DNA of 64,000 nucleotides from Rhizobium sp. ACO-34A (GTDB taxonomy: Bacteria > Pseudomonadota > Alphaproteobacteria > Rhizobiales > Rhizobiaceae). This document shows positions 10,727-36,948 of this stretch, in pieces. Under the pieces are notes generated by a model. That model was not told the origin of the DNA. It searched no databases and saw only the letters and a program-made list of their open reading frames with translations. Each line of letters opens with the position of its first letter. Position 1 is the first letter of the stretch. The stretch spans positions 995,001-1,059,000 of the forward strand of contig CP021371.1 in the NCBI GenBank assembly GCA_002600635.1. The letters are read 5' to 3'. Position numbers and translations under genes: made by a program.

Positions 10727-10733
10727 GGTCAGA

Positions 10734-19934: not shown

Positions 19935-21563
19935 TCAATGGAGACGCGGAAGTTCCAGGCTTTCACCGAAGGATGCCAGGTCCGGATAGAAGGCGGGATC
20001 CGGCCGGGGATCGAGCGCGAAGGCGATACGCGCCAGCGCATCGCGGGCCTTTTGTGCATAGAATTCCTTGGCCCGGTCGTCGGAATGAACGCGGCCGGCT
20101 TCTGAGAGAACCACGGCAGCCTCCCGCGGGCGCTGGTCCGCCAGCAGCGCGACGCCGAGCTTGTATCGGCCCTCGACATGTTGTGGCGCCCGTTGGCAAA
20201 GCTCCCGCAAAGTTTCGATAGCCCGACCGTAGCGCCGGGTCGCGAGATGCACATCTCCGAGCCTCAGCAACACCGGCACGGGATCGGCAAGCCGGGGAAT
20301 GAGGGCGCGGTATGAGGCCTCGGCCGCGCTCATCTCGCCGCGCTCGAACATGAGGTTGGCAAGGCCGAACTCGGCGCCGCGATGGTCGGGCATAGCGGCC
20401 AAAACCTGGCGGAAGGCCGTTTCTGCCTCGGGCTTCTTGCCGGAGTGATAGAGGTCCAGCGCACGTTCATAGACGAAACGCACGCTGCGCGGGTTGATGA
20501 GGCCACCGAGATTGACGCCGTTGCGGGTTCGAAACAGCGTGCAGGAGATCTGCCGTTCCTTGACCCCGAACATGTATTTGTAGGGCTCGTTGCCGCGCAG
20601 GAAATCATAGGTGCGGAAGCCCTCGAAAATCGCCTTTCGGATGCAATAGCCGTGCAGCACGAGGCCGGGCGAGGGCGTGGTCCATGTCTCGTCGCGACCG
20701 GTGATGTAGAACAGGACGGCTTTCTTCTGGCGGTCGATGATGTTGGCGAGAACCCCGAGCGGGCGTTCGCCATGCCAGAGCACCGGCACATCGAGATTGC
20801 CGTCGGCAAAACAGTCCATCAGCACCTCACGTGAGGCGCGGATCATTTTTTCGGCGTTCTCTTCGCCCTTGATCGGCGTCCACCGCGTTCTCCAGAAGTC
20901 GAAGAGGATATCGAGGTCGCGCCCGATCGTTTCCGGCGTTGCCATGGTGATGCGATATTCGTCGCTGCCCTCGACCTTGCGCAGGAAGCGCCTGAGCTTC
21001 TGCCGGGTCTGGCCGCTCATGTGCTGTTCCAGATAGCCGTCCCAGCTGTCGGGCAGGTGGATGACCGGACAGATAGTGTTGTCGATCTGCTGTTCGTTAT
21101 GCGGCACGTTGTTGCGGAACATCACCTCCGGTCCCTGAAGTGCAAGTATCAACGCTTCCCGGCGTCCGGGAGGACCGTTGAAATAGTCGAGTTTGATCTG
21201 TGTCCACCGCTCCTGCCTCAGATAGGCGGCAAAGCCTGTGATGGCTTGCTGCTCATAGTCCGGGACGGTGATGAAGCCAGTGTAGTCGGCGGCGAAATTG
21301 CCGGCCATGATGATCTCGTCGGTGAATATGCCGTCGGCATTGGCCTTCGTCTGCAGGCGCAAGGGAAAGAAGGCGAGGTAGGGAGAAGCGGGTTCGCTCT
21401 TCCTGAGAGCCAGGATGAACCAGCGTCGGCGATGGGAGAGATAGCGGTTCAGCCATGTCCAGGAGAGGAAGTGCTGGGCATCCGGGTCCGCCATGAACAC
21501 CTCGTCCCAGTTCCCGCGAACGGCCGCGAAGGCGTCTGCCGTATCGATGATGTCTATCCGCAC
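19935..21563 (-). CDS. Acetyltransferase-like (GNAT/CelD-like) protein fused to TPR-like repeats
   Basis: A 542-residue two-part protein. Residues about 1-365 match the GNAT-fold Acetyltransf_6/CelD pattern: LSWTWLNRYLSHRRRWFILA, TRQKLRRFLRKVEG, VPVLWHGERPLGVLANIID and GLVLHGYCIRKAIFEGFRTY, followed by DFLRGNEPYKYMFG. Residues about 375-510 are helical repeats of TPR type (RALDLYHSGKKPEAETAFRQ, then LANLMFERGEMSAAEASYRA and two more). It is the last gene of the type I secretion block, 41 bases after a small protein gene. By analogy with toxin-activating acyltransferases it might acylate the secreted proteins, or act on a surface glycan as CelD relatives do; both are guesses. Confidence 0.72.
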   Translation of the reverse strand: MRIDIIDTADAFAAVRGNWDEVFMADPDAQHFLSWTWLNRYLSHRRRWFILALRKSEPASPYLAFFPLRLQTKANADGIFTDEIIMAGNFAADYTGFITVPDYEQQAITGFAAYLRQERWTQIKLDYFNGPPGRREALILALQGPEVMFRNNVPHNEQQIDNTICPVIHLPDSWDGYLEQHMSGQTRQKLRRFLRKVEGSDEYRITMATPETIGRDLDILFDFWRTRWTPIKGEENAEKMIRASREVLMDCFADGNLDVPVLWHGERPLGVLANIIDRQKKAVLFYITGRDETWTTPSPGLVLHGYCIRKAIFEGFRTYDFLRGNEPYKYMFGVKERQISCTLFRTRNGVNLGGLINPRSVRFVYERALDLYHSGKKPEAETAFRQVLAAMPDHRGAEFGLANLMFERGEMSAAEASYRALIPRLADPVPVLLRLGDVHLATRRYGRAIETLRELCQRAPQHVEGRYKLGVALLADQRPREAAVVLSEAGRVHSDDRAKEFYAQKARDALARIAFALDPRPDPAFYPDLASFGESLELPRLH

Positions 21564-21604
21564 CGCATGTCCCCCTTAAGCACTTGATACTTGGAACCGA
21601 GGTC

Positions 21605-22096
21605 TCAGATCTCCCTGGCCAGATGCGGGCTCTTGTGAATGAAAGCCCAGAGCGATTTGCTGATATCGGTGATCTCGGCGATCGAGTTTTCGAGCTGCCG
21701 CATCTCCTTTTCGTCCATCTGCTCGACCTTGCCGTAGCGGATCTCACTGTCGGTCTCGACAAGCCGCATGAGCTGGGTGCTGGAGATGTCACCGCTCTCG
21801 TCGAACGAATAGATGCTGTGATTGTATTTGTTGCGGACCTTGGCTTCCTTTTTGAGCCGCGACATGGCGAACAGCACGGCTTCCCGGTCGGCCTTCGGGG
21901 TGGAGCGACGCTTGGCAAGCCGCTCCACGAGGTCGATGCGGGCGCGGGTGGTATTGAGCGTCAGGAAAACGATGATCGCCGCTTCCTTGTCGATCGCCAG
22001 AAGATGGGCGATGACATAGATGAGCAGGCTTTCCGTATTGGTCCAGACGTAGTTCAGCCGGCCGACTCCCAACAAAACATCCGGCATGTTTCCCAT
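21605..22096 (-). CDS. Conserved-looking small protein with an HEPN-like Rx4H motif, function unknown
   Basis: I do not recognise a named family. The 163-residue protein is predicted mostly helical. It contains KVRNKYNHSIY near residue 88, where Arg88 followed by Asn and His93 fits the Rx4-6H pattern of HEPN-domain ribonucleases. The surrounding helices (LNYVWTNTESLLIYVIAHLL and the C-terminal LENSIAEITDISKSLWAFIH) would suit a four-helix HEPN bundle. GGGAGGG lies about ten bases before ATG 22096. It is 57 bases after the HlyD-family gene and 41 before the acetyltransferase gene, so it belongs to the secretion transcript. No paired nucleotidyltransferase gene is adjacent, so a classical toxin-antitoxin pair is unlikely. 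Confidence 0.6.
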   Translation of the reverse strand: MGNMPDVLLGVGRLNYVWTNTESLLIYVIAHLLAIDKEAAIIVFLTLNTTRARIDLVERLAKRRSTPKADREAVLFAMSRLKKEAKVRNKYNHSIYSFDESGDISSTQLMRLVETDSEIRYGKVEQMDEKEMRQLENSIAEITDISKSLWAFIHKSPHLAREI

Positions 22097-22153
22097 CTTA
22101 TGCGACCCTCCCGCTCCGTTGTGTCGTTGTCCTTTGCGTCGTTGGCTGCCCTG

Positions 22154-23503
22154 TCATTGTTCCTTGAACGCACGAGACATGCTGTCGCTGATCGGCTTCG
22201 AAAGATATTCGAAGAACGTCCGCTCCGATGTCTGGATCAGCACGTCGGCCGGCATGCCCGGGACGGGATGGAAGCCATGCACCAGTGCCAGCTCTTCCTT
22301 GGGCAGTTCGACGCGGACGATATAGACGTCCTTCTGGGCGCCGACAGTGCCTTCCTCGATCGAGTCCGCCGAGACGTAGAACACCTTGCCCGTCAGCACG
22401 GGGGTGGTGCGGCGGTTGAGTGCCGAAAGCCTGATCGCCGCGGTCTGTCCTTCACGGAGCTGATCGATCGAGGTACGCAATACCTGCGCCTCGATGATCA
22501 GGGGAACCCCGGCTGGCAGGATTTCCATGATCGGCTTGCCGGTGGTGATGACACCGCCGGCAGTGTGGTAGTAGGAGCGCACGACAGTGCCGGTGACGGG
22601 CGAACGGATGACCGTGCGTTCAAGCACGCCTGCGGCCCCCGTCATCTGTTCGCGAACACTGTCGAGATCGGATTCAGCCGTTTCCAGCGCGTCGAGCGCA
22701 GCCTGCTTGTTGGAGTTGATCGCGATCACCGCTTCCTGCTGATACTTGGCGATCTGCGCGCGGTTCTCGTTGAGCTCGCCTTCGAGCCGGGCGAGGTCGC
22801 CGAGTGCGTCTGCAATGGCCCGTTCCATGGCGAGCAGGTCCATCTTGCGCAGGTAGCCGACCTTGACGAGCTTCGCCTTGGAATCGCGTTCTTCGGTCAG
22901 AAGAGCGATCTGTTTTTCGAAGGATTCCTTCTGGCCCTGATAGCCGGCGAAGCGGAACTCCAGCGAAACGATGTTCTTCTGGATGAGATTCAGCTGTTCC
23001 TCCAGCTTCACCTGCTTGCTGTGAAAGATGACGTTCTGGCTCTCGATGATGGCGTTGACCTCGAAATCGCTCGCTTCCTTCATCACGATGGCGGGAATTT
23101 TCAGCTGCTTGCTGCCGTCGGCCTCCGCTTTCAGCCGCGCGACCACAGCTTCCAGCCTGAGACGCCGTAGTTTCAGCGCCCGTTCGTCGGCGAGCGCCGC
23201 TGTCGGGTCCAGCGTCAGCAGCACCTGGCCTTCCTTGACCACGTCGCCTTCGCTGACCTGCATATCCTTGATGATGCCGCCCTCAAGATGCTGCACGATC
23301 TTGTTGTTGCCGGTCGCGACGAAGCTACCCTGCGCGATGATCGCAGACGATAGCGGCGCGGTTGCCGCCCAGAAGCCGAAACCGCCGAAGGTGCTGAGCA
23401 GGACCGCCAGCCCGATGGTGGTGTGCCGCCTGATCGAGCGCGGAACCTCGCTGTACCATTCGACGGCTCCCGGGTCTGTTTTCGCTGAAACGCTGCGTGC
23501 CAT
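22154..23503 (-). CDS. Type I secretion membrane-fusion protein (HlyD/PrtE-like)
   Basis: This periplasmic adaptor should link the adjacent ABC exporter to an outer-membrane channel such as TolC. The single N-terminal membrane anchor is TTIGLAVLLSTFGGFGFWAA. The lipoyl half-motifs are GGIIKDMQVSEGDVVKEGQV and, after a long coiled coil (residues about 105-270), VIRSPVTGTVVRSYYHTAGG. The C-terminus SERTFFEYLSKPISDSMSRA, followed by FKEQ, is the typical HlyD-family end. ATG 23503 gives 449 residues; a GTG at 23512 is also possible. No outer-membrane channel gene is in the window, so a shared TolC is expected. Confidence 0.92.
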   Translation of the reverse strand: MARSVSAKTDPGAVEWYSEVPRSIRRHTTIGLAVLLSTFGGFGFWAATAPLSSAIIAQGSFVATGNNKIVQHLEGGIIKDMQVSEGDVVKEGQVLLTLDPTAALADERALKLRRLRLEAVVARLKAEADGSKQLKIPAIVMKEASDFEVNAIIESQNVIFHSKQVKLEEQLNLIQKNIVSLEFRFAGYQGQKESFEKQIALLTEERDSKAKLVKVGYLRKMDLLAMERAIADALGDLARLEGELNENRAQIAKYQQEAVIAINSNKQAALDALETAESDLDSVREQMTGAAGVLERTVIRSPVTGTVVRSYYHTAGGVITTGKPIMEILPAGVPLIIEAQVLRTSIDQLREGQTAAIRLSALNRRTTPVLTGKVFYVSADSIEEGTVGAQKDVYIVRVELPKEELALVHGFHPVPGMPADVLIQTSERTFFEYLSKPISDSMSRAFKEQ

Positions 23504-23512
23504 GGTACTCAC

Positions 23513-26113
23513 TCACTTGTTGTCGAGGCGCGGGGCTTCGCCGCCGGCGCTCTTGCTCAATGCCTTGAGGACTTCGACACGTTCGCCGAACATCGCGACC
23601 GATCCGTCCTTGAGCACGAGGATCTTGTCGACCACCTGCAGAAGGGCAGGGCGCTGGGTGATCGTCACCGTGGTGATGCCCTGCTTCTTCGCATGGATGA
23701 GCGCGCGGGCAAGGGCTGCCTCGCCAAGCGTGTCGAGATTGGAATTCGGCTCGTCGAGCACCACGAACTTCGGATCGCCGAAGAAGGCGCGGGCAAGCGC
23801 GATGCGCTGTTTCTGGCCGCCCGAGAGCGGCGCGCCATCGGCTGCCACCACGGTTTCGTAACCCTGCGGGAAGCCGGCGATCAGTTCATGCACGTCAGCA
23901 AGCGTTGCCGCCTCGAAGATCTGCCGGTCTTCCACGTCGTCGCGCATGCGGCTGATATTCGCCTTGATCGTGCCGGGGAAGAGCTGCACGTCCTGCGGCA
24001 GGTAGCCGATGCTTTCGCCGAACTGCCGCTGGTCCCAGTTGCGCAGGTCCATCAGGTCGAGGCGCACATTGCCCGATGTCGGCAGGATGGAGCCCACCAG
24101 CATCTTGCCGAGCGTCGTCTTGCCGGAACCGGAATTGCCGATGATGGCGAGCGATTCACCCTTGCGCAACGAGAAGGAAATGCCGTTGAGGATCACCTTC
24201 TTCTGCGGTGGCGGAACGAAGAGAATGCGCTCCACATCGAGCCGTCCCTCGGGATTGGGCAGGCGCAGGCGCGGAAAGTTCAGTGGCGAGTTCACCAGCA
24301 ACTGCTTGATGCGGCCATAGGCGGAGGCCGACTTGTTGAACTGGTTCCAGCCTTCGATCGCTCCTTCGATCGGGGCAAGAGCGCGACCGGAGATGATCGA
24401 TGCAGCGATCACCATCCCGCCGGTCAGTTGCCCCGAAAGCGAAAGATGAGCCCCCCAGCCGAGAAGGGCGATTTGCGTGATCATGCGGCAGCCCTTGGAA
24501 AGACCGGCGAACATGATGTTCCTGTCCTGTGCCGCGACATGCGCCTTGAGGGAACCAGCGGTTTCCTGGCCCCACATCCGCACGGCCTCGGGGATCATGG
24601 CCAGCGCATTGATGATCTGCGAGTTGCGCGACATGGATTCGAGATGGAAATTCGCGCGTCCGGCAAAACCGTTGGCCTCGGCGAAGTGTCGCGCCGTGAA
24701 CCGCTGGTTCAGGAAGGCGATGAAGAACAACACCGCGCAGCAGGTCAGGATGATGAGACCGAGATGCGGATGGACGAGATAGACCACCAGCACGAAAAGA
24801 GGCATCAGCGGTGCGTCGAGGAAGGCGATCAGCGTGCCCGATGTCAGGAAGCCGCGAAGCTGCTGCAGGTCCTGCAGGATCTGGTAGTCCTTGCCCGAAC
24901 CGTGCAGCGACGCTCTCGCCGCCGCGCTGAGAATGGGAGCGCCGAGCTGCACCTCCAGCTCGACCGCCGTGCGCATCAGGATGAAGCGCCTGATGGCATC
25001 GAGGAAGGCCTGAAGCAGGACGGCGCCGACGACCGCGATGGTCAGCATGATCAGCGTGTCCATCGAGCGGCTGGTCAGGACGCGGTCGGAGATCTGGAAG
25101 AGATAGAGCGGGATGGCGAGAAGCAGCACGTTGATGGCGACGGTGAAGACCATCACGATCACCATGTTGCGCCGGACCGCGGCGATACCCTTTGCAAGGC
25201 TGGCCGCGAAATTCACCGGGCCGCTGCGCTTGTGGAAACCGGCCTGGCCCCCGTTGCCGCCGCCGCCATTGCCGTTGTCGTCGGGTTCCTTGCCGTTACC
25301 GCCGCCACCATTGGCGGGACGCCGCTCGTTCTCCCGGATCGGCCCCCTGTCGTTTTCGATGGTCTTGCCGAACGGTTTGTCCTGAACGGGCTTGATGTCG
25401 ATTTCCCGTACGGGCTGCTCGCGTCGCGCCACCGGTTCGGCAGGCGTCGCCGGTTTCACTGCCGCCGCCTCCGACGCGACGGCCGCCCCGCTCTTGTTAT
25501 TATTCTGGGCAGGGGCGGCCGCCCGTCCGGCGGACCCGTTTGGCGCCGCAGCCGCGACATTCGGCGGCGCCGTTTGAGCGTTAGCCTGAGGTCCCCTGGA
25601 GGTGGGACCGTTCGGTTGTGCGACTGCGGCCTCTGTGGCGACGCCCCGGCGCATCGCGGATTGCGATGCAGCGTTGTCGAGGCGTCTCAGGTTTTCGATC
25701 ACGTCGTCGATTGTCGGGGTTCCGGCTTTCGGTTCCCGGGGCATCAATGCGGATACGGGGATGAACCCCGGCATCCTGCCGACCGGGGACCGTTCCACCG
25801 AAGGCCGTGGCTGAAGCGGCGGTCCGATCCGGCCATCGCTTGCGCCTGAAGGCTGCGGCGGCAGGATGACGGCGGCCTTTTCCTCGTCCTTCCCGGCAGG
25901 GCCTTCAGGCAATCGCGCCAGACCCGACTGCTCGACAAGCTGCGATGCGGAATCGGTGAGTTTCTTCAGGTCGCCGATGACGTTGTCGATTGCCGATATG
26001 CAGGCATTCGCCGGATCTGCCTCCCCATCTCCCAGCGGCGACCCAGACTGGCTCTCGCGATCCAGGTCGATGGCCTTGCTTCTCGACAATTCGTCCTTCG
26101 ATACGTGGTTCAT
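23513..26113 (-). CDS. Type I secretion ABC exporter (PrtD-like) with a long disordered N-terminal extension
   Basis: The C-terminal 565 residues form a standard type I secretion ATPase/permease: six membrane segments (from about 317), Walker A GNSGSGKT at 659-666, signature LSGGQKQ at 763-769 and Walker B FVVLDEPNSNLD at 783-794. Before this lie about 300 extra residues rich in Pro, Ala, Gly and Asn, ending in a Gly/Asn stretch at about 269-292. Two related 17-residue segments occur in it, IDNVIGDLKKLTDSASQ at 42-58 and IDDVIENLRRLDNAASQ at 135-151, both predicted amphipathic helices. PrtD-type exporters normally start directly at the membrane domain, so the extension is unusual. The stop abuts the adaptor gene, and the large repeat-protein gene ends 22 bases upstream. 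Confidence 0.92.
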   Translation of the reverse strand: MNHVSKDELSRSKAIDLDRESQSGSPLGDGEADPANACISAIDNVIGDLKKLTDSASQLVEQSGLARLPEGPAGKDEEKAAVILPPQPSGASDGRIGPPLQPRPSVERSPVGRMPGFIPVSALMPREPKAGTPTIDDVIENLRRLDNAASQSAMRRGVATEAAVAQPNGPTSRGPQANAQTAPPNVAAAAPNGSAGRAAAPAQNNNKSGAAVASEAAAVKPATPAEPVARREQPVREIDIKPVQDKPFGKTIENDRGPIRENERRPANGGGGNGKEPDDNGNGGGGNGGQAGFHKRSGPVNFAASLAKGIAAVRRNMVIVMVFTVAINVLLLAIPLYLFQISDRVLTSRSMDTLIMLTIAVVGAVLLQAFLDAIRRFILMRTAVELEVQLGAPILSAAARASLHGSGKDYQILQDLQQLRGFLTSGTLIAFLDAPLMPLFVLVVYLVHPHLGLIILTCCAVLFFIAFLNQRFTARHFAEANGFAGRANFHLESMSRNSQIINALAMIPEAVRMWGQETAGSLKAHVAAQDRNIMFAGLSKGCRMITQIALLGWGAHLSLSGQLTGGMVIAASIISGRALAPIEGAIEGWNQFNKSASAYGRIKQLLVNSPLNFPRLRLPNPEGRLDVERILFVPPPQKKVILNGISFSLRKGESLAIIGNSGSGKTTLGKMLVGSILPTSGNVRLDLMDLRNWDQRQFGESIGYLPQDVQLFPGTIKANISRMRDDVEDRQIFEAATLADVHELIAGFPQGYETVVAADGAPLSGGQKQRIALARAFFGDPKFVVLDEPNSNLDTLGEAALARALIHAKKQGITTVTITQRPALLQVVDKILVLKDGSVAMFGERVEVLKALSKSAGGEAPRLDNK

Positions 26114-26135
26114 CTGTTTCCCCCCAGATCGTCCT

Positions 26136-28181
26136 TCAGGCGATCACTGTTTGCATCACGTCCGCAGGACTTGCGTGAGCCGCTCCGAAGTCATTCGCCG
26201 AATTGAAGACAATGTCGTCCGTGTCGGGGGTCACGGGATCATTGTCGAGAAAGGCGATGACTTCGTTGGCAAGCTGGTTGTTCACCGGTTGCGGCTGGGT
26301 GTGGTCATCTTCCACGAGGCCTCCCTGGATCAGAATGGCGTCGGAATAGGTCTGGCCCGCCACATAGGTCGAGCCGCCGAAACTGTCGTAATCGACGATC
26401 TGGGCGATGTTGATGACCGCATTGCTGCCGGTGTCGATGGTGACGGTGGCGTTCTGGTTGCTGGCGAGATAATCCGACGCGGCCTGCGTGACATGGTCGG
26501 CATCGCCGAGAATGCTCACCTGCTTGATATAGGTGATGTCGTAGAGATTGCCGGTGATGTAGAGAACGTTCAGCCATTCGTGACCGACGAAATTGGCGTC
26601 GGTTCCCAGCGTTTCCGGCATGTTCGGATCGCCGTTCTGAATGTTCTGCTGTGCCTGCTTCATGTAGTCAGGCATCGCCTCGAAGCGATCGTTGCTGCCG
26701 ACGTTATGGATCGAGGCCTCGTTCCACAAAAGGTTGTTGCCGGTCTGCGTCGTGACGTTGTCGGCACATCCCGGTTCGCCGGTAATCGTGTCGTTGTCAT
26801 AGAGAACGGCCAGCTGGCTGATGATGTTCATGTCGAGCACGTTGCCGCCGACGATTACCAGGTCGTATTGCTGGCTCAGCCCGAGATAGGCTGTGATGTT
26901 GAACGCGGCGTTGCCGCCGATCAGCACGGTCGTCTCGTAACCGGTTGTGGTGACGATCATCTGGTCGTTGTCGGTAACGAAATTGTACTGTTCGATCCAC
27001 TGCACGAAGCAGACGTCCCCGTCGATGACGCTCACGCGCCAGTCGGAAGGGTAGGTCGGATCCTGATCCGGAGCCGTATGGCTGTCCGTTCCGGTGTCCC
27101 CGAAGACCGTGCGGTCGAATGCGGCGATGTTGAGGGCGATGGTCGGCAGGTGGCTGCTATCGACGTCACCACCTTCGCCGCCGCATCCGTTCGGGGCAAA
27201 GGCGTTGGTGTCGTTGTCGCTGTAGACATAAGCCTGCGTGATCACATCGATCTGGTGGTAGTTGCCCATCACGCTCATCACCGGCGTAATCACGCCCGTC
27301 GTCGTGAAGCTGGCGATGTTGACGACGACATTGGCACCGGCAGTGATTTCGAGCGTGTTCTGCGGTCCCGGCTGTTCGAGCGGCGTTTCGCTTTCTTCCG
27401 GGTCTTCTTCCACTTTGGCCAGCCCGCGATCGGGTATCAGGTCATCGAGCGAGGGGACTTCCTCCGTCAGCACTCCATTGACATAGGTGCCGTGGATCTC
27501 GTCACCCGCCAGAACGAAGTTCACCTCGCCATCGTCGCCGATCGTTGTCGTGTTGTTGGCGACCAGTTCCTCTTTGTATTCGTGAACCTCCTGCGCGATT
27601 TTCTGCAGGCCTTCGTAAGTGTCTGTGCGATGGAGATCGGAAAAGGGGGTGAAGCGCACGGCGTCGGTTGCGAACTCCGCCAGCCGCTCGACGACGTAGC
27701 CGGTATCCAGCTTCTCGTGATAGGTGCTGGTCATGTTCAGGTAGTCGTCGTCGAAAAGCAGATTGATCTGCGCCATGTGCGAAATGGCCGATCCCGCTCC
27801 GGGATGGACGACAAGACGTTCATCTATTTCGACAGGAATGTGGGGTTCGTCCAAACCCATGCGTGGCAGCCTGAATCCGCCCGCGAAACCTTCATCGAGA
27901 TCCATGAATTCCTGTGTCGAGATCGGATCAAAGTATGCCCGTCCCCCGACATCGAAGAGCCTGTAATCATTGTCCTGGTATTCGACGCCCGGAATATAGC
28001 CTTTCAGTGCGAGGTCGGAGGCGAAATTGGGATCCAGCGCTTCGAGATCCTCCGGAGGTGATGCGGTATTGTCACTCACCTGACCGCCCGTGTAGCCGAT
28101 GCGCAGCCGCGCCTCGTCCATGACGCTGTCGAAATGCCCGATGAAGTGGGCGATGATTTCGGAAATCCTGTCGATCTGCAT
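26136..28181 (-). CDS. Large acidic repeat protein, probable type I secretion substrate
   Basis: I do not recognise a named family. The 681-residue, acidic protein has no N-terminal signal peptide. It contains at least four copies of a roughly 21-residue motif, at about 306-326, 388-408, 446-466 and 544-564, plus a weaker one near 129-148. The shared pattern is Gly-Asn/Asp, six residues, Ile, any, Gln, five residues, Asp-x-Asp. Examples are GNVLDMNIISQLAVLYDND and GNLYDITYIKQVSILGDAD. Between them lie segments such as GANVVVNIA, GGNAAFNITA and GSNAVINIA. This looks like a beta-solenoid with acidic, possibly calcium-binding turns. The acidic C-terminus without Cys would suit a type I signal. 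ATG 28181, preceded by GGGAGG, is better than ATG 28199. It lies directly upstream of the exporter gene. Confidence 0.75.
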   Translation of the reverse strand: MQIDRISEIIAHFIGHFDSVMDEARLRIGYTGGQVSDNTASPPEDLEALDPNFASDLALKGYIPGVEYQDNDYRLFDVGGRAYFDPISTQEFMDLDEGFAGGFRLPRMGLDEPHIPVEIDERLVVHPGAGSAISHMAQINLLFDDDYLNMTSTYHEKLDTGYVVERLAEFATDAVRFTPFSDLHRTDTYEGLQKIAQEVHEYKEELVANNTTTIGDDGEVNFVLAGDEIHGTYVNGVLTEEVPSLDDLIPDRGLAKVEEDPEESETPLEQPGPQNTLEITAGANVVVNIASFTTTGVITPVMSVMGNYHQIDVITQAYVYSDNDTNAFAPNGCGGEGGDVDSSHLPTIALNIAAFDRTVFGDTGTDSHTAPDQDPTYPSDWRVSVIDGDVCFVQWIEQYNFVTDNDQMIVTTTGYETTVLIGGNAAFNITAYLGLSQQYDLVIVGGNVLDMNIISQLAVLYDNDTITGEPGCADNVTTQTGNNLLWNEASIHNVGSNDRFEAMPDYMKQAQQNIQNGDPNMPETLGTDANFVGHEWLNVLYITGNLYDITYIKQVSILGDADHVTQAASDYLASNQNATVTIDTGSNAVINIAQIVDYDSFGGSTYVAGQTYSDAILIQGGLVEDDHTQPQPVNNQLANEVIAFLDNDPVTPDTDDIVFNSANDFGAAHASPADVMQTVIA

Positions 28182-28271
28182 GTCCGCCTCCCTGCCCATG
28201 CGTCAAACGGCCATGCATGACGGAAATTTCCGTCGCATCGCCCGTCCTCGCTGACACAGCCTCAAGCCGCT

Positions 28272-28300
28272 GGACTGCACCGGGCGCGCCGGTGCAGTCC
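28272..28300. other. Perfect 12-base hairpin between the two secreted-protein genes
   Basis: GGACTGCACCGG (28272-28283) and CCGGTGCAGTCC (28289-28300) form a perfect stem with a five-base loop. In the direction of transcription (minus) it lies about 25 bases after the acidic protein's stop and about 90 bases before the large protein's start. No T-run follows on that strand, so it may stabilise the upstream mRNA or attenuate rather than terminate; a T-rich run follows on the plus strand. Confidence 0.6.
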
Positions 28301-28323
28301 TTTCTTGTCTTGGGGGGAAGCTA

Positions 28324-29307
28324 TCAGGCGCCCGAGTCCTCGCCGGTATGCGTGACATAGGAGTCGCCGCCTATGACGCTGCTGTCGATCGTGTTGCTCA
28401 GCAGGTTCGCACCCTGGACGAACTCGAAGTGGAAGCCCGAGTTGGCAAGGATTGCCGAAGCATCGGCCGTGCTCGCGCCGGAGACGTCGTCGCCTGCGGT
28501 GAGATCCCAGCCCTTGGAGTCGAGCTGCACACCTTCGCTGCTGCCGGCCTCGCCGCCATTGGCGTTCAGGTAGTTCTGGGCGCCGCCATTTTCCATGCGG
28601 ACTTCCCAGGCCGTATCCTGGTCGGCGAGATGGCTTGCCTGAACAGCGCTGAAGCCGCTGTCGTTGCCGGCACCGTTGAGCGAGTCGTTCAGAATGTTGT
28701 CGACATTGAGCGTGAAGGAGAAGTCGTCACCGATCTCGAAGGTCAGGTCGCCACCGGCGATGCCGAGATTGCCGAAGTCGTGGACGTTGTCGAGCTGGCC
28801 GAAATCGTTATCGGACGCGTTGAAGCTGTCGCTCGTGGTGACGTTGAAACTGTCGGTGGTCGTCTTGATGTCGGTGTCCGTTTCGGTCACCGTCTTGATG
28901 TCGGTATCGATATCCGTTTCGGTGTTGGTGTAGGACTTGCTGTCATAGCTCCAGTCGTAATCGGAGGTATTGTAGCTGTCCGTCACCGTCGTGGTGTCGT
29001 TGTCGGTGATGGTCTTGATGTCGGTATCGGTTTCGGTGTTCGAATAGGACTTGCTGTCGTAGCTCCAGTCGTATTCATTGTCGCGATTGTCACCGTTGTC
29101 GGTTGCGACATCCACGTCGATCTTGGAGTCGACATCAACGTCGATGCTGTTGTCGGTATTGTCACGGTTGTCGCCATTGGCGAGGCCACCGACATAACCG
29201 GTCGAACCGTCATCCACTTCCGTAGAATTGATCGCACTGTTGGCAAAGCCATCAGCCAGGGCACCAACATTGGTCTCGTCGCCCTTGGGATCGTAATTAT
29301 AAGACAT
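28324..29307 (-). CDS. Asp/Thr/Ser-rich repeat protein, probable type I secretion substrate
   Basis: No named family is recognised. The 327-residue protein is extremely acidic and has no signal peptide or Cys. Residues about 43-160 are low-complexity, with two 38-residue tandem units starting YDWSYDSKSY at residues 79 and 117 and several TDTDIKT-type repeats. Residues about 168-327 look more ordered and end in an acidic, Gly/Ser-rich tail, as in many type I substrates. ATG 29307 follows GGAGGAACGGAA; the longer frame to 29355 would add a Cys-containing leader with no ribosome binding site. It is the first gene of the secretion block, and its acidic repeats suggest Ca2+-dependent folding outside the cell. 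Confidence 0.72.
   Translation of the reverse strand: MSYNYDPKGDETNVGALADGFANSAINSTEVDDGSTGYVGGLANGDNRDNTDNSIDVDVDSKIDVDVATDNGDNRDNEYDWSYDSKSYSNTETDTDIKTITDNDTTTVTDSYNTSDYDWSYDSKSYTNTETDIDTDIKTVTETDTDIKTTTDSFNVTTSDSFNASDNDFGQLDNVHDFGNLGIAGGDLTFEIGDDFSFTLNVDNILNDSLNGAGNDSGFSAVQASHLADQDTAWEVRMENGGAQNYLNANGGEAGSSEGVQLDSKGWDLTAGDDVSGASTADASAILANSGFHFEFVQGANLLSNTIDSSVIGGDSYVTHTGEDSGA
28846..29073 (-). repeat. Two tandem 114-base units in the acidic protein gene
   Basis: The units lie at about 28960-29073 and 28846-28959 and encode 38 residues each. The first ten codons (YDWSYDSKSY) are almost identical between them, as shown by GGACTTGCTGTC recurring at 28933 and 29047. Divergence increases toward the end of the second unit. 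Confidence 0.75.
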
Positions 29308-30012
29308 TTCCGTTCCTCCAAAAAAATTGGAGCAGCATTCGAAAATCCCTCTCATCTCAAATGGGATCTGTTTCGCGCTTGCTCCATATTGTTGTTGACC
29401 GCAGACGTACGATGTACGAACTCATCTGCAGCAGCTCATTCGTTCCGGGGATCCTTGAATATCCTCGAGACGCACTCTCCCTTCTCCGAAATGCATATGC
29501 AGATCGGGCCAAATTTTTCTTTTTGGCATTATTGGTCAGTCGATTAGAAAGGTCTGACTATTGTTATGCAATACTATTAATGACAGACCCGTCCTCTTCC
29601 GACACATGAACTCAACAGGAAAACGCACGTCGTTCCTAGCCACGAAATCGGATTAGTCAGTAGTGCTGAGAAGTACCGGAAATCACTTTCGGTTGCGCGG
29701 GTTAGCCGAAAACACATCTTCTGCGGGTTTGGCGAGAGGGCAAAAATTTCAGTAAAAACCAAGGGGGGAGGCGAAAATCATGGATGAGAGAAAATCTGTG
29801 GAGAATGTCCGGGTATGCCCAAAAAAGTCGCGTTTTGACCGAGTTTGTGGTTTTTTTGACGTGGAATAACCCAAAATGGTCATTTCCAATCCCTGCTTTT
29901 CGAACTAACATAATTAACTAATAATTAAAACAATGAAAGGGATTGGGGGCCAAAAGCGGCTCCCCCGCGGATCTGCATGTAAAGAGTAAGCTAACGCCAA
30001 GGGGAGGCATGT
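29308..30012. other. 705-base AT-rich regulatory region upstream of the secretion operon
   Basis: No gene is supported; open frames at 29361-29609 and 29702-29911 lack ribosome binding sites and recognisable content. The region is clearly AT-richer than the flanking genes and must contain the divergent promoters of the acidic-protein operon (minus) and the LuxR-type regulator (plus). It holds a 9-base inverted repeat, CCAATCCCT at 29886-29894 and AGGGATTGG at 29938-29946. GGGGAGG at 30001-30007 is the regulator's ribosome binding site. Confidence 0.55.
29886..29946. promoter_or_regulatory. Widely spaced inverted repeat upstream of the LuxR-type regulator
   Basis: The 9-base arms CCAATCCCT and AGGGATTGG are separated by 43 AT-rich bases. 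They lie 67-127 bases before the regulator's start and could be paired operator half-sites, possibly for autoregulation. Chance occurrence is also possible. Confidence 0.25.
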
Positions 30013-30786
30013 ATGTTTATGACTGAGTCACATATAAGTGACCCCGCACGTCATATGCCGGGGGTAGTTCAGGGCAATTCTATACTGATGATCGCGAGGC
30101 AGGATCTTTTAGCCGAGTGTTTGGCTGAGGTTCTCTCCAGAAAATTCCCAAATCATGACATTATAGTTCGCGCTGCCATGCGGGATGTCAGTGAAAACGA
30201 AGAAAATGAAGCAAATCTGATCTTGCTTTATCGTCTTTCCTCCGCAGATATACAGGACGTCCTTCACAGATTGCGACGTGACAAGGATGGCGCTTCGATC
30301 GGTATCGTCGTCGATGGCGTAGGACAGTTGGACGCCTACTACCGCAACCTCGCCGAAGCCCGCACAATTGATGGGATTTTGCCGCTCAACCTGCGGCTCG
30401 ATGTATTTCTCGCCGCAGTCGACCTGCTCGCAAAGGGTGGGGAGCATTTCCCTTCGGCTCTTCTGCAGCGTTTGAGCAGCGATGCGCCCCTCGTCGAGGT
30501 TTCGTATGAGAGTGGTCTGGTCACGGCGGCCAGGTCGAATACCCTGACTCTGCCGAACGGGGATATGGCGGCTCTCACGACGAGGGAAGTCCAGATCCTC
30601 GATCTCATCTGCGAAGGGACGCAGAACAAGATCATCGCAGACCGGCTGAACCTTTCGGAAAACACCGTGAAGGTGCACATCCGGAACATCTACAAGAAGA
30701 TGCACGTACGCAACCGCACCGAAGCGGCCTCGCGCTTCTTCAACAATGACAGGTCGACGAGCGGCCAGAGCAGGCGGCAGAACTGA
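30013..30786 (+). CDS. LuxR/NarL-family transcriptional regulator with a degenerate receiver domain
   Basis: A 257-residue DNA-binding regulator. The C-terminal helix-turn-helix (LTTREVQILDLICEGTQNKI, then IADRLNLSENTVKVHIRNIY and KKMHVRNRTEA, residues about 188-240) is a clear NarL/FixJ type. The N-terminal 130 residues resemble a receiver fold (SILMIARQDLLAECLAEVLS), but the position that should carry the phospho-accepting Asp reads LILLYRLS, and the usual acidic pair is missing. It therefore probably does not work by ordinary phosphotransfer, and no histidine kinase gene is near. ATG 30013 or 30019 may be used. Its position suggests control of the divergent secretion operon or the polysaccharide operon downstream. 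Confidence 0.82.
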   Translation: MFMTESHISDPARHMPGVVQGNSILMIARQDLLAECLAEVLSRKFPNHDIIVRAAMRDVSENEENEANLILLYRLSSADIQDVLHRLRRDKDGASIGIVVDGVGQLDAYYRNLAEARTIDGILPLNLRLDVFLAAVDLLAKGGEHFPSALLQRLSSDAPLVEVSYESGLVTAARSNTLTLPNGDMAALTTREVQILDLICEGTQNKIIADRLNLSENTVKVHIRNIYKKMHVRNRTEAASRFFNNDRSTSGQSRRQN

Positions 30787-31161: not shown

Positions 31162-31529
31162 GTGTTACCCCGCCGTCGGTCACATCCAAAAGCACTGTGA
31201 CCGATTCGAGCGGGCTTTGACAGCTGTGTATTAGCAATTCCTGACAATGGGTGGGGAAAACTCACCTCGTTTGAGGTCTCAAGCTTTATGGTTAATCATA
31301 TATGACCACAAAGTACTACGTGTAATCATATCGGATTTTATCAAAAATATTCGTTGACCGGAATGGAAATAGAGGGCGTATTTGTATTTACACAAGGTTA
31401 ATTTCCAAATTTTATCAAAAATAGATTTGTTCTATTTTGGTACGTGGAGACTAAGTCTTGTGGAGTATAGTGTTCACTGGGTCGAGTTCAGGATATTTGT
31501 TTGTAGCCCTGAGGCTGGGGGTATGTGTA
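31162..31529. other. 368-base AT-rich intergenic region before the polysaccharide operon
   Basis: No gene is visible. The region is strongly AT-rich, unlike its flanks, and should contain the promoter of the operon starting at 31530 and that of the minus-strand lipoprotein gene. It carries an exact 15-base direct repeat (listed separately) and two AATCATAT elements near 31295 and 31324. Confidence 0.5.
31335..31423. promoter_or_regulatory. Exact 15-base direct repeat, candidate regulator sites
   Basis: ATTTTATCAAAAATA occurs at 31335-31349 and again at 31409-31423, with a 74-base period, close to seven helical turns. The second copy lies about 107 bases upstream of the operon's first start codon. 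Exact repetition in the promoter region suggests binding sites for one regulator, perhaps the neighbouring LuxR-type protein. Confidence 0.4.
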
Positions 31530-32561
31530 ATGCGTAAGCTCTTCTCCGATGATTCTCCTTCGCTGGATATGACTTCGGTACCTTTTCCACGCATGGTTCT
31601 CGTTAATGGCGGTGCCGGTTTCCTGGGTTCGCATCTCTGCGAGCGCCTGCTGGAGGCCGGTCACAGCGTCATCTGTTGCGATGATTTTTCGACCGGGCGT
31701 CGGGAAAACATCCGGCACCTTCTGTCGAAACCGGGTTTCCGCGTCATGGAACACGACGTGCGTGATCCCTATGACGTCGATGCCTCGCTGATATTCAACT
31801 TCGCCTCGCCGGCCTCGCCGCCGGACTACCAGCGCGACCCGGTCGGCACGTTGCTGACCGGCGTGCTCGGGGCGCTGAACGCGCTTGATCTTGCCCGGCG
31901 CAATAGCGCAATTGTGGTGCAATCATCGACCTCCGAGGTCTATGGCGATCCGCTCCAGCATCCGCAGCAGGAAAGCTATTGCGGCAACGTCAATCCGATC
32001 GGGCCGCGAGGATGCTATGATGAGGGCAAGCGTTGCGCCGAGACGCTGTTCTTCGACTATCACCGCAAGTACGGCGTCGATATCAAGGTCGGCCGTATCT
32101 TCAATACCTATGGGCCGCGCATGCGCCTGGATGACGGGCGCGTCGTCTCGAACTTCATCGTTCAGGCGTTGCAGAACCAGGACATGACGATTTACGGCGA
32201 TGGTCACCAGACCCGCTCGCTCTGCTACGTCGATGACCTGATCGAGGCCTTCATGCGCTTCTCCGGTGCCGGCAGCGATTGCAACGGACCTATCAATCTC
32301 GGCAATCCGGTCGAAATCCCGGTTCTTCAGCTCGCCGAGCTGATCCGCGATCTGACCAATTCCCGGTCGCGCATCGTGCATCTTGCCGCTGCTGTCGACG
32401 ATCCGAAGCAACGTCGCCCTGATATTTCCCGGGCGGCGGAAGAACTCGGCTGGCGGCCGCGCGTGTCCTTGAGGGACGGGCTGGAAAAGACCATCCGTTA
32501 CTTCGATGCCGTGATCGGCCAGGCCGCTACGGAAGGGCGCGAACCCGCGGAGGCATTGTGA
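31530..32561 (+). CDS. NAD-dependent SDR, UDP-glucuronate decarboxylase (UDP-xylose synthase)-like
   Basis: Family members convert UDP-glucuronate to UDP-xylose through a bound-NAD oxidation, decarboxylation and reduction. The NAD motif VNGGAGFLGSHLCERLLEAG lies at residues 25-44. The catalytic pair is Tyr163/Lys167 in RGCYDEGKRCAE, and FNFASPASPPDYQRDPVGTL and GRIFNTYGPRM are hallmark UXS segments. At 343 residues the length fits. I chose ATG 31530 (upstream CTGGGGG); ATG 31569 is an alternative. It begins a five-gene polysaccharide operon, with galE one base downstream, so it likely provides a pentose donor for the polymer or another glycan. Confidence 0.85.
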   Translation: MRKLFSDDSPSLDMTSVPFPRMVLVNGGAGFLGSHLCERLLEAGHSVICCDDFSTGRRENIRHLLSKPGFRVMEHDVRDPYDVDASLIFNFASPASPPDYQRDPVGTLLTGVLGALNALDLARRNSAIVVQSSTSEVYGDPLQHPQQESYCGNVNPIGPRGCYDEGKRCAETLFFDYHRKYGVDIKVGRIFNTYGPRMRLDDGRVVSNFIVQALQNQDMTIYGDGHQTRSLCYVDDLIEAFMRFSGAGSDCNGPINLGNPVEIPVLQLAELIRDLTNSRSRIVHLAAAVDDPKQRRPDISRAAEELGWRPRVSLRDGLEKTIRYFDAVIGQAATEGREPAEAL

Positions 32562-32562
32562 G

Positions 32563-33546
32563 ATGTCCCGCACAGTTCTCGTTACCGGAGGCGCCGGCTT
32601 CATCGGCAGCCATATCTGCAAGGCACTCTCCCATTCGGGTTTCATCCCGGTGGCCTACGACAACCTTTCCACCGGACACGCGGATGCGGTCCGGTGGGGA
32701 CCGCTGATCGAGGCCGATATCGCGGATGACGATGCGTTGCGGGCGGCTTTTGACCGGTTCACGCCGGATTGCGTTATCCACTGCGCAGCCAATGCCTATG
32801 TCGGGGAATCCGTCACCAACCCGCAAAAATACTACCGTAACAATGTGGCGGCGGGCCTCAGCCTGCTCGATGCCTGCCTCGCGGCAGGCATCGGCAGGAT
32901 CGTCTTTTCCAGTAGCTGCGCGACATACGGTATTCCCGAGCAGCTGCCGATCCGCGAGGACAGCGTTCAGGAGCCGGTCAATCCCTATGGCCGCACCAAA
33001 CTGATCTTCGAAATGGCGCTCGATGACTATGCGCAGGCCTATGGCCTGAACTTCGTCGCCCTGCGCTACTTCAACGCTGCCGGTGCCGATCCCGATGGTG
33101 AGCTTTGCGAACGGCATGAGCCGGAGACGCATCTCATTCCGCGGGCGCTGCTTGCTGCGGCCGGCATGCTCGACCGGCTGGAGATCTTCGGTCAGGACTA
33201 TCCGACCGACGACGGCACCTGCATTCGTGACTATATCCACGTCAGCGATCTGGCCGATGCCCATGTGGCCGCCGTCCGCCATCTGGCGAATGGCGGCGAC
33301 ACGCTGCGCCTCAATCTCGGATCCGGCCAGGGCACCTCGATCGACGAGGTCCTACAGGCAATCGACCGGATTACCGGTCGGCGGGTTCCGGTTATCTTCA
33401 AGCCGCGCCGCCCCGGCGATCCGCCGGTACTTTTTGCGGATACCGCGAGCGCCCGCACCAAACTCGGCTTCGTGCCACGCCTTTCGGATATCGACACGAT
33501 CATCCGTACGGCAAGCCCCAGCTTCGGCCTGGAGGTGGTTCGATGA
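32563..33546 (+). CDS. galE: UDP-glucose 4-epimerase
   Basis: GalE interconverts UDP-glucose and UDP-galactose in the cytoplasm. [20 protein letters not shown] at residues 4-23 is the NAD-binding motif. The catalytic YxxxK is in NPYGRTKLIFE, and LRYFNAAGADPDGELCERHE plus TPDGTCIRDYIHV-like DDGTCIRDYIHVSDLADAH are GalE signatures. The 327-residue length is normal. It starts one base after the preceding stop, and its own stop overlaps the glycosyltransferase start (ATGA). Confidence 0.92.
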   Translation: MSRTVLVTGGAGFIGSHICKALSHSGFIPVAYDNLSTGHADAVRWGPLIEADIADDDALRAAFDRFTPDCVIHCAANAYVGESVTNPQKYYRNNVAAGLSLLDACLAAGIGRIVFSSSCATYGIPEQLPIREDSVQEPVNPYGRTKLIFEMALDDYAQAYGLNFVALRYFNAAGADPDGELCERHEPETHLIPRALLAAAGMLDRLEIFGQDYPTDDGTCIRDYIHVSDLADAHVAAVRHLANGGDTLRLNLGSGQGTSIDEVLQAIDRITGRRVPVIFKPRRPGDPPVLFADTASARTKLGFVPRLSDIDTIIRTASPSFGLEVVR

Positions 33547-35420: not shown

Positions 35421-35465
35421 CGCGGGGCCGAAGGCTCGTGCGCATTTGTAGAAAGGGAGGGTACA

Positions 35466-35969
35466 ATGAAGAAATACCTAAAGAACGGTGGCATCGTATG
35501 CCTGGCGCTCGCCCTGTTCTTGCCGCCAGCCGCCTTTGCCACCAGCGCCACCTCGCAGAAGAAGGTCGAGCCGCTGAGCGCAGCCGAGCTGACTGCGATC
35601 TACAGCGGCAAGACCTGGGTGTGGGGCACGGGTGGAGGCCGCTTCGACGCCAAGGGACGCCGTTTCGTTGCCTATACCGACGAGAAGGGCAAACCGTCCC
35701 TCGGCGAGGGCAGGTGGGTCGTCGATAACAACGGCAAGCTCTGCATCTTCGCCAAATGGACGGCAAGCGATGGCGCTGGCCGGGCGGCAACCTGTTTCGG
35801 TCACGTCAAGGTAGGCGATACGATCTACCAGCGTCGCCATCCCTTTGGTCACTGGTATGTCTTCCGCCATGCATCGGAGCGAACCAGCGACGAGTTCCGC
35901 AGGCTGATTGCCGCCGACACGATCAGCAGCCGCGCGCTCGATCTCAAGAAAAACCTGGCGGCAAATTGA
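35466..35969 (+). CDS. Exported DUF995-like protein
   Basis: A 167-residue protein with a cleavable signal peptide ending AAFA near residue 26. The mature part begins LSAAELTAIYSGKTWVWGTG and continues GRWVVDNNGKLCIFAKW, ATCFGHV and IYQRRHPFGHWYVFRH, a pattern I associate with DUF995 in Rhizobiales. Cysteines in KLCIF and ATCFG could form a disulfide in the periplasm. Function is unknown; its location between the synthase and the GH26-like hydrolase suggests a role in periplasmic handling of the polysaccharide. The ribosome binding site GGGAGG lies just upstream of ATG 35466. Confidence 0.75.
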   Translation: MKKYLKNGGIVCLALALFLPPAAFATSATSQKKVEPLSAAELTAIYSGKTWVWGTGGGRFDAKGRRFVAYTDEKGKPSLGEGRWVVDNNGKLCIFAKWTASDGAGRAATCFGHVKVGDTIYQRRHPFGHWYVFRHASERTSDEFRRLIAADTISSRALDLKKNLAAN

Positions 35970-35988
35970 AGAAGGAAGGAGGAATGCG

Positions 35989-36948
35989 ATGAAAAACATA
36001 AAGAGAAGAACCCTGCTGACGACGGCGGTCACGTCGTTGGTCGTCGCCGGTTCCTATCCACTGACACGTGCGCAGGGTGTTGGCGGACTTGCCAATTCAA
36101 CGGCCCAGACCATCCGCGACAAGAGGCCCGTCGTCCACGATGGCGGCATCAGGTTCGGCGCCTACGATCCGCACGGGGATTTCGCAAGCCAGCACAACGT
36201 CTCGACGGAAGGGCTCTTCCTGCCGTGGGAAGACGTCGATCTCGACTCGCTGAAACTCGCCGACGCCTACGCGCTGGAGAGGAACCGCAACCTGCTCATC
36301 ACCATCGAACCCTGGTCGTGGGATGTCGGCTGGCGCCTGACCTCGGGTCAATTGCGGGAAAAGGTGATGCGTGGCGAATACGACGTCAACATGCAGACCA
36401 TCGCCGCGTTGATCGGCCAGATGAAGAGCCCGGTCATCGTGCGCTGGGCTCAGGAAATGGAAGATACTTCGGGCCGTTTTTCATGGGCCGGGTGGGCGCC
36501 GCAGGATTACGTCACCGCCTACAGGCGGATGATGGATATCCTGCGGCGGGAGGCCCCGAAGGCGGATCGCATGTGGTCGCCGAAGGGACTGCCGAACCTC
36601 ACGCCCTACTATCCGGGAGACAACTATGTCGATCTGGTAGGTCTCTCTGTCTTCGGTCTCGAGGGATATGACGAGCGGGCCTATGGCGCGCCACGCAACT
36701 TCCCACAGAGCCTGAAGCAGGGATACGATCTGGTGGAGGGCCTCGGCAAGCCGGTCTGGGTCGCCGAATTCGGATACGAAGGGAGCGACGGCTACATCAC
36801 GCCCTGGATGCAGGAGGCCACGCTGAAACGGGACGAATTCCCGGCACTTGTGGAAGTCGTCTACTTCAACGACCGCGATGTGCACGCATGGCCCTTCAAC
36901 CTCGGCCGCCCCGACTGGCGCGTGCTCCGGGGCCAGGCGACCAACTGA
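35989..36948 (+). CDS. Exported GH26-like glycoside hydrolase
   Basis: A 319-residue beta/alpha-barrel hydrolase probably cutting a beta-linked glycan. The predicted catalytic pair is Glu156 in VIVRWAQEMED (acid/base) and Glu260 in VWVAEFGYEG (nucleophile), matching the GH26 arrangement of beta-mannanases and mixed-linkage glucanases. The N-terminus MKNIKRRTLLTTAVTSLVVA carries a twin Arg and could be a Tat or Sec signal. ATG 35989 follows GAAGGAAGGAGG; an overlapping ATG at 35984 is out of frame. It closes the operon and is followed by a strong terminator. It probably trims or releases the polymer made by the GT2 synthase, as periplasmic glycanases do in cellulose and alginate loci. Confidence 0.78.
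   Translation: MKNIKRRTLLTTAVTSLVVAGSYPLTRAQGVGGLANSTAQTIRDKRPVVHDGGIRFGAYDPHGDFASQHNVSTEGLFLPWEDVDLDSLKLADAYALERNRNLLITIEPWSWDVGWRLTSGQLREKVMRGEYDVNMQTIAALIGQMKSPVIVRWAQEMEDTSGRFSWAGWAPQDYVTAYRRMMDILRREAPKADRMWSPKGLPNLTPYYPGDNYVDLVGLSVFGLEGYDERAYGAPRNFPQSLKQGYDLVEGLGKPVWVAEFGYEGSDGYITPWMQEATLKRDEFPALVEVVYFNDRDVHAWPFNLGRPDWRVLRGQATN

What the first reader, a model, noticed from the sequence alone, without database searches (positions are those of the whole stretch)
19935..29307. Six-gene type I secretion locus with two unrecognised acidic substrates and accessory genes
Seen directly: six genes on one strand with short gaps (142, 22, 0-9, 57 and 41 bases). The order is acidic repeat protein, large repeat protein, ABC exporter, HlyD-family adaptor, small HEPN-like protein, acetyltransferase-TPR fusion. 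Type I systems are known to pair substrates with the exporter and adaptor, but a disordered N-terminal extension on the exporter, a helical Rx4H protein and an acyltransferase-like gene in the same run is not an arrangement I know. Inference: this is a dedicated surface or secreted-matrix system in which substrates may be modified before export. It is my best candidate for an undescribed system here.
Basis: partly seen in the sequence, partly recalled or inferred. Interest (0 to 1): 0.78.

Follow-up and report, generated by a model that had tools for sequence, protein, structure and literature searches.

The report
Orphan secretion locus with RNA switch
A set of genes in soil bacteria that appears to export two unusual acidic surface proteins, matching a transporter whose cargo was never found, and whose first gene carries a conserved RNA structure that probably switches its own production on and off.

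Summary
The six genes are real and in order. The core is a conserved module: A (acidic repeat protein), B (repeat protein), C (exporter), D (adaptor), E (small RX4H protein). All five occur in 64 of 64 adequately spanned relatives; a divergent LuxR/CsgD-like gene R in 60, the acetyltransferase-TPR gene F in only 32. So F is accessory, and R was missed. In R. johnstonii 3841 the only close exporter match is almost certainly ToaD of ToaDE, a published type I system whose cargo was never found; A and B are the obvious candidates. That study saw no supernatant change in a toaD mutant, so export is unproven. New here: (i) a structured leader RNA just upstream of A, in which one strand can pair with an upstream arm or with the ribosome-binding site, in 61 of 62 leaders; (ii) a covarying hairpin after A; (iii) in 41 of 73 loci the neighbour is a block matching the c-di-GMP-activated aps polysaccharide operon. 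Best reading: a dedicated secreted-matrix system with post-transcriptional control of A. E resembles HEPN RNases by motif only; structure prediction never ran (24 busy answers).

The parts
28324..29307 (-). gene A: acidic low-complexity protein (327 aa, pI 4.05, 11 K+R, 66 D+E, no Cys); candidate type I substrate
   Evidence: linked in 64 of 64 adequately spanned loci
26136..28181 (-). gene B: acidic repeat protein (pI 4.05), five Q-x5-D-x-D repeats, C-terminal DVMQ-type tail; candidate type I substrate (ORF opens at 28199; family start fits 28181)
23513..26113 (-). gene C: PrtD-type ABC exporter with low-complexity N-terminal extension; ortholog of ToaD
22154..23512 (-). gene D: HlyD-type periplasmic adaptor; by position ortholog of ToaE
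   Evidence: TIGR01843; L045
21605..22096 (-). gene E: small protein with invariant W, E and R-x4-H; HEPN-like by motif only
19935..21563 (-). gene F: Acetyltransf_6 (GNAT) plus TPR; accessory, in 32 of 64 loci
30013..30786 (+). gene R: LuxR/CsgD-like regulator, divergent; in 60 of 64 loci
29306..29400 (-). leader RNA of gene A: stems P1 and P2 and an alternative stem P3 that covers the Shine-Dalgarno sequence; conserved core at 29347-29366
28272..28300 (-). GC-rich hairpin after the stop of A, without a following T-run
31458..36948 (+). neighbouring uxs-uxe-apsS-DUF995-apsE block, matching the S. meliloti aps operon
   Evidence: PMC7902896 passages

Best explanation
The locus is a dedicated type I secretion module, orthologous to the orphan ToaDE system of R. 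leguminosarum 3841. C and D, with a TolC-type protein encoded elsewhere, export A and B, two acidic, Cys-poor proteins, which form an extracellular protein matrix. That matrix probably works together with the arabinose-containing polysaccharide whose genes are the neighbours in many genomes. Synthesis is controlled at three levels: transcription by the divergent LuxR/CsgD-like R; translation of A by a leader RNA in which one strand pairs either with an upstream arm (P1, ribosome site free) or with the ribosome site (P3, closed); and mRNA stability or processing by the hairpin after A, giving more A than B-C-D. E, kept in every adequately spanned locus and in some lineages placed directly behind R, acts on the RNA side of this control. 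Shown by computation: linkage, conserved RNA structures, orthology of the exporter. Inferred: export, matrix role, switching, action of R and E.
For: A-B-C-D-E in 64 of 64 adequately spanned loci. B and strong E in the same 12 of 61 family genomes and the same 2 of 289 class genomes. E is kept although its place changed (2 changes on the B tree; directly behind R in 14 of 74 rows, 12 distinct places). In 3841 the best exporter match is 77% at 91.5 kb, the next 34% and 36%, consistent with toaDE. A and B: pI 4.05 to 4.65; no Cys in 68 of 78 A and 41 of 80 B, at most 3 and 4; tail D-[VPLGIA]-[ML]-[QH] in 80 of 80 B. Leader: exclusive P1/P3 pairing in 61 of 62, shuffled flanks mean 12, max 20; covariation of P1+P2 0.216 against 0.118 in column shuffles and at most 0.043 when slid; single site in own genome at up to 2 mismatches. 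Hairpin after A: 74 of 78 above the 95% point of control stretches, 11 of 13 pairs with two-sided changes, single site in own genome. aps block complete in 41 of 73 loci, also beside the Sulfitobacter locus.
Against: The toaD mutant of 3841 had no supernatant, biofilm, motility or nodulation phenotype (PMC2275737). No outer-membrane gene in the locus. aps block absent in 27 of 73 and incomplete in 5; in the S. meliloti record L108 none within 10 kb. R not detected in 4 of 64. The leader model found nothing at E<=1 in 23 of 30 sources; beyond rows used to build it or near them (L045, window, L051) it is significant in L108 and L018 only, and the L018 hit lies about 1 kb before A while the one next to A has E=0.1. 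Two of five covariation measures of the leader are reached by shuffles (65 and 131 of 500). P1 is predicted 5 kcal/mol more stable than P3 in the window, so a factor would be needed to close the site. A-B profile similarity is not significant. No signal-peptide predictor was run and no fold could be computed.
Confidence: 0.68

Rival explanations
1. A and B are not the cargo; ToaDE exports something else (or nothing under known conditions), and A and B are intracellular or otherwise exported proteins that merely share the operon.
For: No protein was lost from the supernatant of the 3841 toaD mutant. A and B match no Pfam family, so no RTX repeats were found.
Against: A and B are linked to the exporter in 64 of 64 loci; acidic, Cys-poor composition and a conserved acidic-hydrophobic C-terminal tail of B fit type I substrates.
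Confidence: 0.18
2. The leader structure is not a switch: P1 is a mere stabilising stem, and the CTCC/GGAG pairing with the ribosome site is a side effect of both arms resembling a Shine-Dalgarno sequence.
For: Any P1 5' arm rich in GGAG pairs with a CTCC strand that also pairs with GGAG. P1 is the minimum-energy state. Shuffled flanks still give up to 20 of 62.
Against: P3 extends beyond the GGAG core and changes with the bases next to it (CTCCGAA/TTCGGAG, CTCCAG/CTGGAG, CTCCGG/CTGGAG, CTCCC/GGGAG) in 61 of 62 leaders; the core loop is strongly conserved although unpaired.
Confidence: 0.3
3. The hairpin after A is an ordinary terminator that lowers transcription of B-C-D.
For: Strong stem close behind the stop codon in 74 of 78 loci.
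Against: No T-run follows it in the loci listed.
Confidence: 0.3

Closest known systems
ToaDE of Rhizobium leguminosarum bv. viciae 3841 (PMC2275737)
   Same: Exporter and adaptor in the same order; only close exporter match in that genome.
   Different: Described as exporter and adaptor only, with no known substrate nearby; the passages read do not describe A, B, E, R, the leader RNA or the hairpin.
PrsDE (R. leguminosarum)
   Same: PrtD-type type I exporter and adaptor.
   Different: The 3841 exporter taken to be PrsD by position is 34% identical; PrsDE secretes RTX and cadherin-like proteins (PMC2275737, passages).
BapA/BapBCD of Paracoccus denitrificans (PMC5588039, passages)
   Same: Very acidic repeat protein next to a type I system, needed for biofilm.
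   Different: BapA is 2,211 residues with 891 Asp-Ala repeats and the operon has its own outer-membrane gene. A P. denitrificans record also holds a homologue of B; its relation to the bap genes was not examined.
aps operon of Sinorhizobium meliloti (uxs1-uxe-apsS-apsH1-apsE-apsH2)
   Same: Same gene order in the window beyond R.
   Different: A polysaccharide operon, not secretion; not within 10 kb of the secretion genes in S. meliloti record L108.
HEPN RNases (for example HepT)
   Same: R-x4-H motif, here R-N-x3-H in most members, and a conserved W-x3-E (the motif of the family is recalled).
   Different: No significant profile match to HepT, Pfam or PDB sequences.

Membership tests
Type I secretion system (PrtD/PrsD type) | ABC exporter of the PrtD subfamily | tested here: met
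   TIGR01842 769 bits, cut-off 510
Type I secretion system (PrtD/PrsD type) | HlyD-type adaptor | tested here: met
   TIGR01843 407 bits, cut-off 209
Type I secretion system (PrtD/PrsD type) | TolC-type outer-membrane protein | tested here: inconclusive
   not in the locus; four two-domain OEP frames and two weak ones elsewhere in the genome; which one is used is unknown
Type I secretion system (PrtD/PrsD type) | substrates leave the cell by this exporter | not testable with these tools
   a published toaD mutant showed no supernatant change
RTX proteins | Ca-binding nonapeptide repeats in the substrates | tested here: not met
   no Pfam match in A or B of the window
HEPN RNase superfamily | R-x4-6-H motif (recalled definition) | tested here: met
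   34 of 34; 67 of 68 by a strict pattern, the other (L107) reads RNKYTH; kept in three relatives from outside this locus, lost in L125
HEPN RNase superfamily | profile or fold similarity to HEPN proteins | tested here: inconclusive
   best alignment to 9 HepT proteins falls on the motif but P=0.06, probability 0.9%; with alignment A2 P=0.25; unrelated profiles reach P=0.14 (the 9 of 15 were picked by a pattern that contains the motif). No Pfam or PDB hit; structure prediction never ran
Translational leader switch (riboswitch-like) | conserved core plus mutually exclusive stems, one covering the ribosome site | tested here: met
   61 of 62 leaders, covariation
Translational leader switch (riboswitch-like) | signal-dependent switching | not testable with these tools
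   no ligand or binding protein known; no Rfam match at E<=1 at this place
aps operon | order uxs-uxe-apsS-H1-apsE | tested here: met
   window against S. meliloti pSymB: 60, 62, 58, 40 and 50% identity, same order
BapA-type system | Asp-Ala dipeptide repeats and own outer-membrane gene | tested here: not met
   A is 16% D with T, N and G; no such gene among the six

The most novel reading that the evidence does not exclude
Gene A is governed by a previously undescribed class of translational leader RNA, and E is an RNA-acting protein dedicated to this one operon: a HEPN-like nuclease or RNA-binding protein that recognises the AGAUGA-loop hairpin of the leader and/or cuts at the hairpin behind A. 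It would couple export capacity or surface state to the synthesis of a secreted matrix protein, a self-contained protein-RNA control loop inside a type I secretion operon.
Probability: 0.27. Interest if true: 0.86.

Novelty: new variant of a known kind. Interest (0 to 1): 0.72.

Why it matters
ToaDE was left in 2008 as an enigmatic exporter without cargo, despite single, double and triple mutants. This locus names two cargo candidates, a regulator, an RNA switch that may explain why nothing was seen in laboratory medium, and a likely partner polysaccharide under c-di-GMP control. It turns an old open question into a short list of tests in a laboratory strain, and offers a candidate new RNA regulatory element.

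Tried and rejected
The recalled idea that SMc04205-04209 was this locus was wrong: passages of two papers describe an iron-related locus. The praR and tolC papers gave nothing recognisable under the terms tried, and the passages found in the R. etli c-di-GMP secretome paper mention no second type I system; I had no R. etli or S. meliloti tags for these genes and did not read supplements. The Paracoccus BapA system was considered and is different. Homology of A and B was tested by profile comparison: best E=0.013, probability 3%, not claimed. A terminator reading of the hairpin after A was not preferred for lack of a T-run. PADLOC, NCBIfam and PHROGs gave no credible hit for E; NCBIfam hits of A to staphylococcal SdrD/ClfB repeats (E 1.6e-4 and 0.0024, far below their cut-offs) are taken as shared Asp-rich composition. 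A strict short motif in the exporter extension was found in 38 of 71 exporters only and is not claimed as universal. The Rfam hit mir-1908 (E=0.87, inside B on the other strand) is taken as chance. The AUG in the leader loop was considered as an upstream reading frame; its frame relative to A differs between near relatives (window in frame, L028 not; read), so it was not taken as an extension of A; in some distant loci an in-frame upstream start remains possible. Structure prediction of E was asked 23 times and of B once; the machine was busy each time, so no fold is reported.
Full report
What is there. Six minus-strand genes, F-E-D-C-B-A by rising coordinate, lie at 19935-29307. C is a PrtD-type exporter, D its HlyD-type adaptor, F an Acetyltransf_6-TPR fusion; A, B and E have no Pfam match at E<=0.1. 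A divergent LuxR/CsgD-like gene, R, lies at 30013-30786. The genome is a Ciceribacter-like Rhizobiaceae: the nearest B proteins are from Ciceribacter sichuanensis and Rhizobium daejeonense.

Conservation. E was sought in 61 genomes of the family: 14 have a match, 12 of them strong, 2 weak. B was sought in the same 61: it is in 12, exactly those with a strong E. In 289 genomes of the class B is in 2 and strong E in the same 2; two more have weaker E matches (5.7e-12 and 4.9e-7) without B. A scan of named genomes with the B alignment gave 310 pattern stretches and 245 relatives, of which the best 80 were kept as loci. Of these 80, 64 reach far enough on both sides of B (4.6 kb before, 6 kb after); all 64 hold A, B, C, D and E, 60 hold R, 32 hold F. 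The 16 dropped are short on one side; 12 of them show no E, each with too little sequence on a side where E could lie. Homologues of A to E and R also occur in Sulfitobacter and Paracoccus. E changes place: after D in most loci, or divergent from them; it lies directly behind R in 14 of 74 rows (12 distinct places; 4 more rows have both on one strand but with larger overlap or distance). On a tree of 85 B proteins the two arrangements need 2 changes, shuffled mean 12 (12 cut-off rows not counted; in L094 and L106 the divergent class rests on E alone; long branches make deep placements unsure). A gene that is kept through rearrangement is unlikely to be a passenger. F, by contrast, is optional, which weakens the idea of modification before export.

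The orphan exporter. Krehenbrink and Downie (PMC2275737; passages read) named toaDE (RL0072/RL0071) in 3841, found no known substrate within 10 kb and no effect of a toaD mutation on supernatant proteins, biofilm rings, swarming or nodulation, and called the system enigmatic. In that genome the window exporter has one close match, 77% at 91.5-93.7 kb, then 34% at 3.85 Mb, 36% at 0.67 Mb and 27% on another replicon (the tool scored 150 of 345 candidates). Position and order fit ToaD, PrsD, TobD and BltD; I had no locus-tag table, so the identity rests on this order. Paper searches for RL0085-RL0090 and RL0070-RL0075 found no other work on the neighbours; in a search for toaDE or toaD, the 2008 paper was the only relevant one of 20 listed from 6,997 that hold such a word. 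A search for HEPN with type I secretion, operon and Rhizobium found no paper. Other names may exist.

The candidate cargo. A and B have pI 4.05 in the window and 4.05 to 4.65 across 78 and 80 members; 68 of 78 A and 41 of 80 B have no Cys. I see no Sec-type signal by eye; no predictor was run. B is well conserved; its invariant residues fall in a repeated Q-x5-D-x-D pattern, five times in the window protein against 0.37 on average and 3 at most in 2000 shuffles, and it ends in D-[VPLGIA]-[ML]-[QH] plus a few residues in 80 of 80. Such C-terminal tails are typical of PrtD-class substrates (recalled). A is variable: Asp/Thr-rich in the window type, Gly-rich with QGQ or NGN repeats elsewhere, with a conserved C-terminal stretch. 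The exporter extension is low-complexity, 142 to 324 residues in the 11 exporters compared, and an FH[KR]R motif precedes the membrane part in 62 of 71.

The leader RNA. Alignment of the R-A gap of 20 chosen sequences showed its best conserved block right before A. The core, TCCCATTTGAGATGAGAGGG, is found with up to 5 mismatches before A in 62 of 76 loci and, with up to 2 mismatches, once in the own genome, once in one relative and in none of the other 59. The core is stem P2 with a strongly conserved loop. An outer stem P1 encloses it; the 3' strand of P1 can also pair with the Shine-Dalgarno sequence (P3). Both pairings, overlapping, exist in 61 of 62 leaders (the window and 61 loci; L032 was dropped as too short, L041 fails), against a mean of 12 and a maximum of 20 with shuffled flanks (rows are related, so this is no probability). 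On 31 chosen leaders P1 has two-sided changes at 4 of 7 pairs and P2 at none of 5; for both together the covariation score is 0.216 against 0.118 in column shuffles and at most 0.043 when slid, but the number of pairs with two-sided changes and of pair types is reached by 65 and 131 of 500 shuffles. A model search of 30 sources hit, at E<=1, the window and L045 (both in the model), L051, S. meliloti L108 (1.9e-7), L018 (1.8e-5 about 1 kb before A, 0.1 next to A), L017 and L107 (0.05); 23 sources gave nothing. A simple scan for a hairpin with an A[AG]ATG[AT] loop near A hit 63 of 90 rows against 18 of 450 random stretches (two places are counted twice, neither with a hit, and the L108 hit of that scan is not the leader). 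In distant loci the stem letters change while pairing stays (ATCCC/GGGAT, ATCAC/GTGAT, GACGCT/AGCGTC, AGCGCC/GGCGTT); the scan asks for pairing, so the change of letters, not the pairing, is the evidence. In the window the P1 state is predicted at -27.1 and the P3 state at -22.1 kcal/mol. No Rfam family matches here at E<=1.

The hairpin after A. A GC-rich stem starts 11 to 49 bases after the stop of A. Of 78 loci scanned, 74 exceed the 95% point of 234 control stretches, whose maximum is above all of them. On 34 of 68 distinct hairpins, 11 of 13 pairs have two-sided changes; covariation is 0.451 against 0.169 shuffled and at most 0.116 slid. The exact Rhizobium form occurs once in the own genome and once in the relative G029, and in none of 59 others (other forms were not searched). 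No T-run follows. By analogy with other operons (recalled) it should protect or separate the A message.

The neighbours. Beyond R lie uxs-uxe-apsS-DUF995-apsE, the order of the S. meliloti aps operon, which makes an arabinose-containing, Congo red-binding polysaccharide under c-di-GMP and CuxR (PMC7902896, passages). The block is complete in 41 of 73 loci with enough flank, partial in 5, absent in 27, and is present beside the Sulfitobacter locus. This suggests, but does not prove, a joint protein-polysaccharide matrix.

E. The six residues invariant from the window to three distant relatives outside this locus are W18, E22, A40, R53, R88 and H93 (13 rows). This fits the R-x4-H motif of HEPN nucleases (recalled). 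But profile comparison with HepT is not significant, no PDB or Pfam match was found, and no fold could be computed. HEPN membership is therefore open; action on RNA is an inference from the motif, from its place behind R in some lineages and from the two conserved RNA structures in the same locus.

Verdict. A real, conserved and coherent system; a known exporter family with newly assigned candidate cargo and a candidate new RNA control element. New variant of a known kind, with a bolder reading that the evidence does not exclude.

Noticed in passing
18176-19864 -: A beta-CASP metallo-beta-lactamase-fold protein (RNA-nuclease type) lies just behind F on the same strand; it was found in only 3 of the 96 loci compared, so it is not part of the module.
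   Followed up: partly
L097:2979-3199: In Mesorhizobium prunaredense the stretch before gene A that holds the leader-like hairpin appears twice in tandem.
   Followed up: no
L018:9644-9735 and 10677-10773: Two matches of the leader model in one locus, one between R and E and a weak one before A.
   Followed up: no
L124:12012-14006: A distant locus carries two A-like frames side by side before B.
   Followed up: no
L125:8038-8733: A genome in which no B was found carries an E-like protein that has lost the R-x4-H motif.
   Followed up: no
30805-31161 -: A small lipoprotein-like frame lies between R and the aps block, on the opposite strand.
   Followed up: no
L108 (CP090106.1): The S. meliloti Ak57 record is titled plasmid pSymB but is 3.7 Mb long and carries the secretion locus beside hppD and hmgA, so it may be a mislabelled chromosome.
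   Followed up: no
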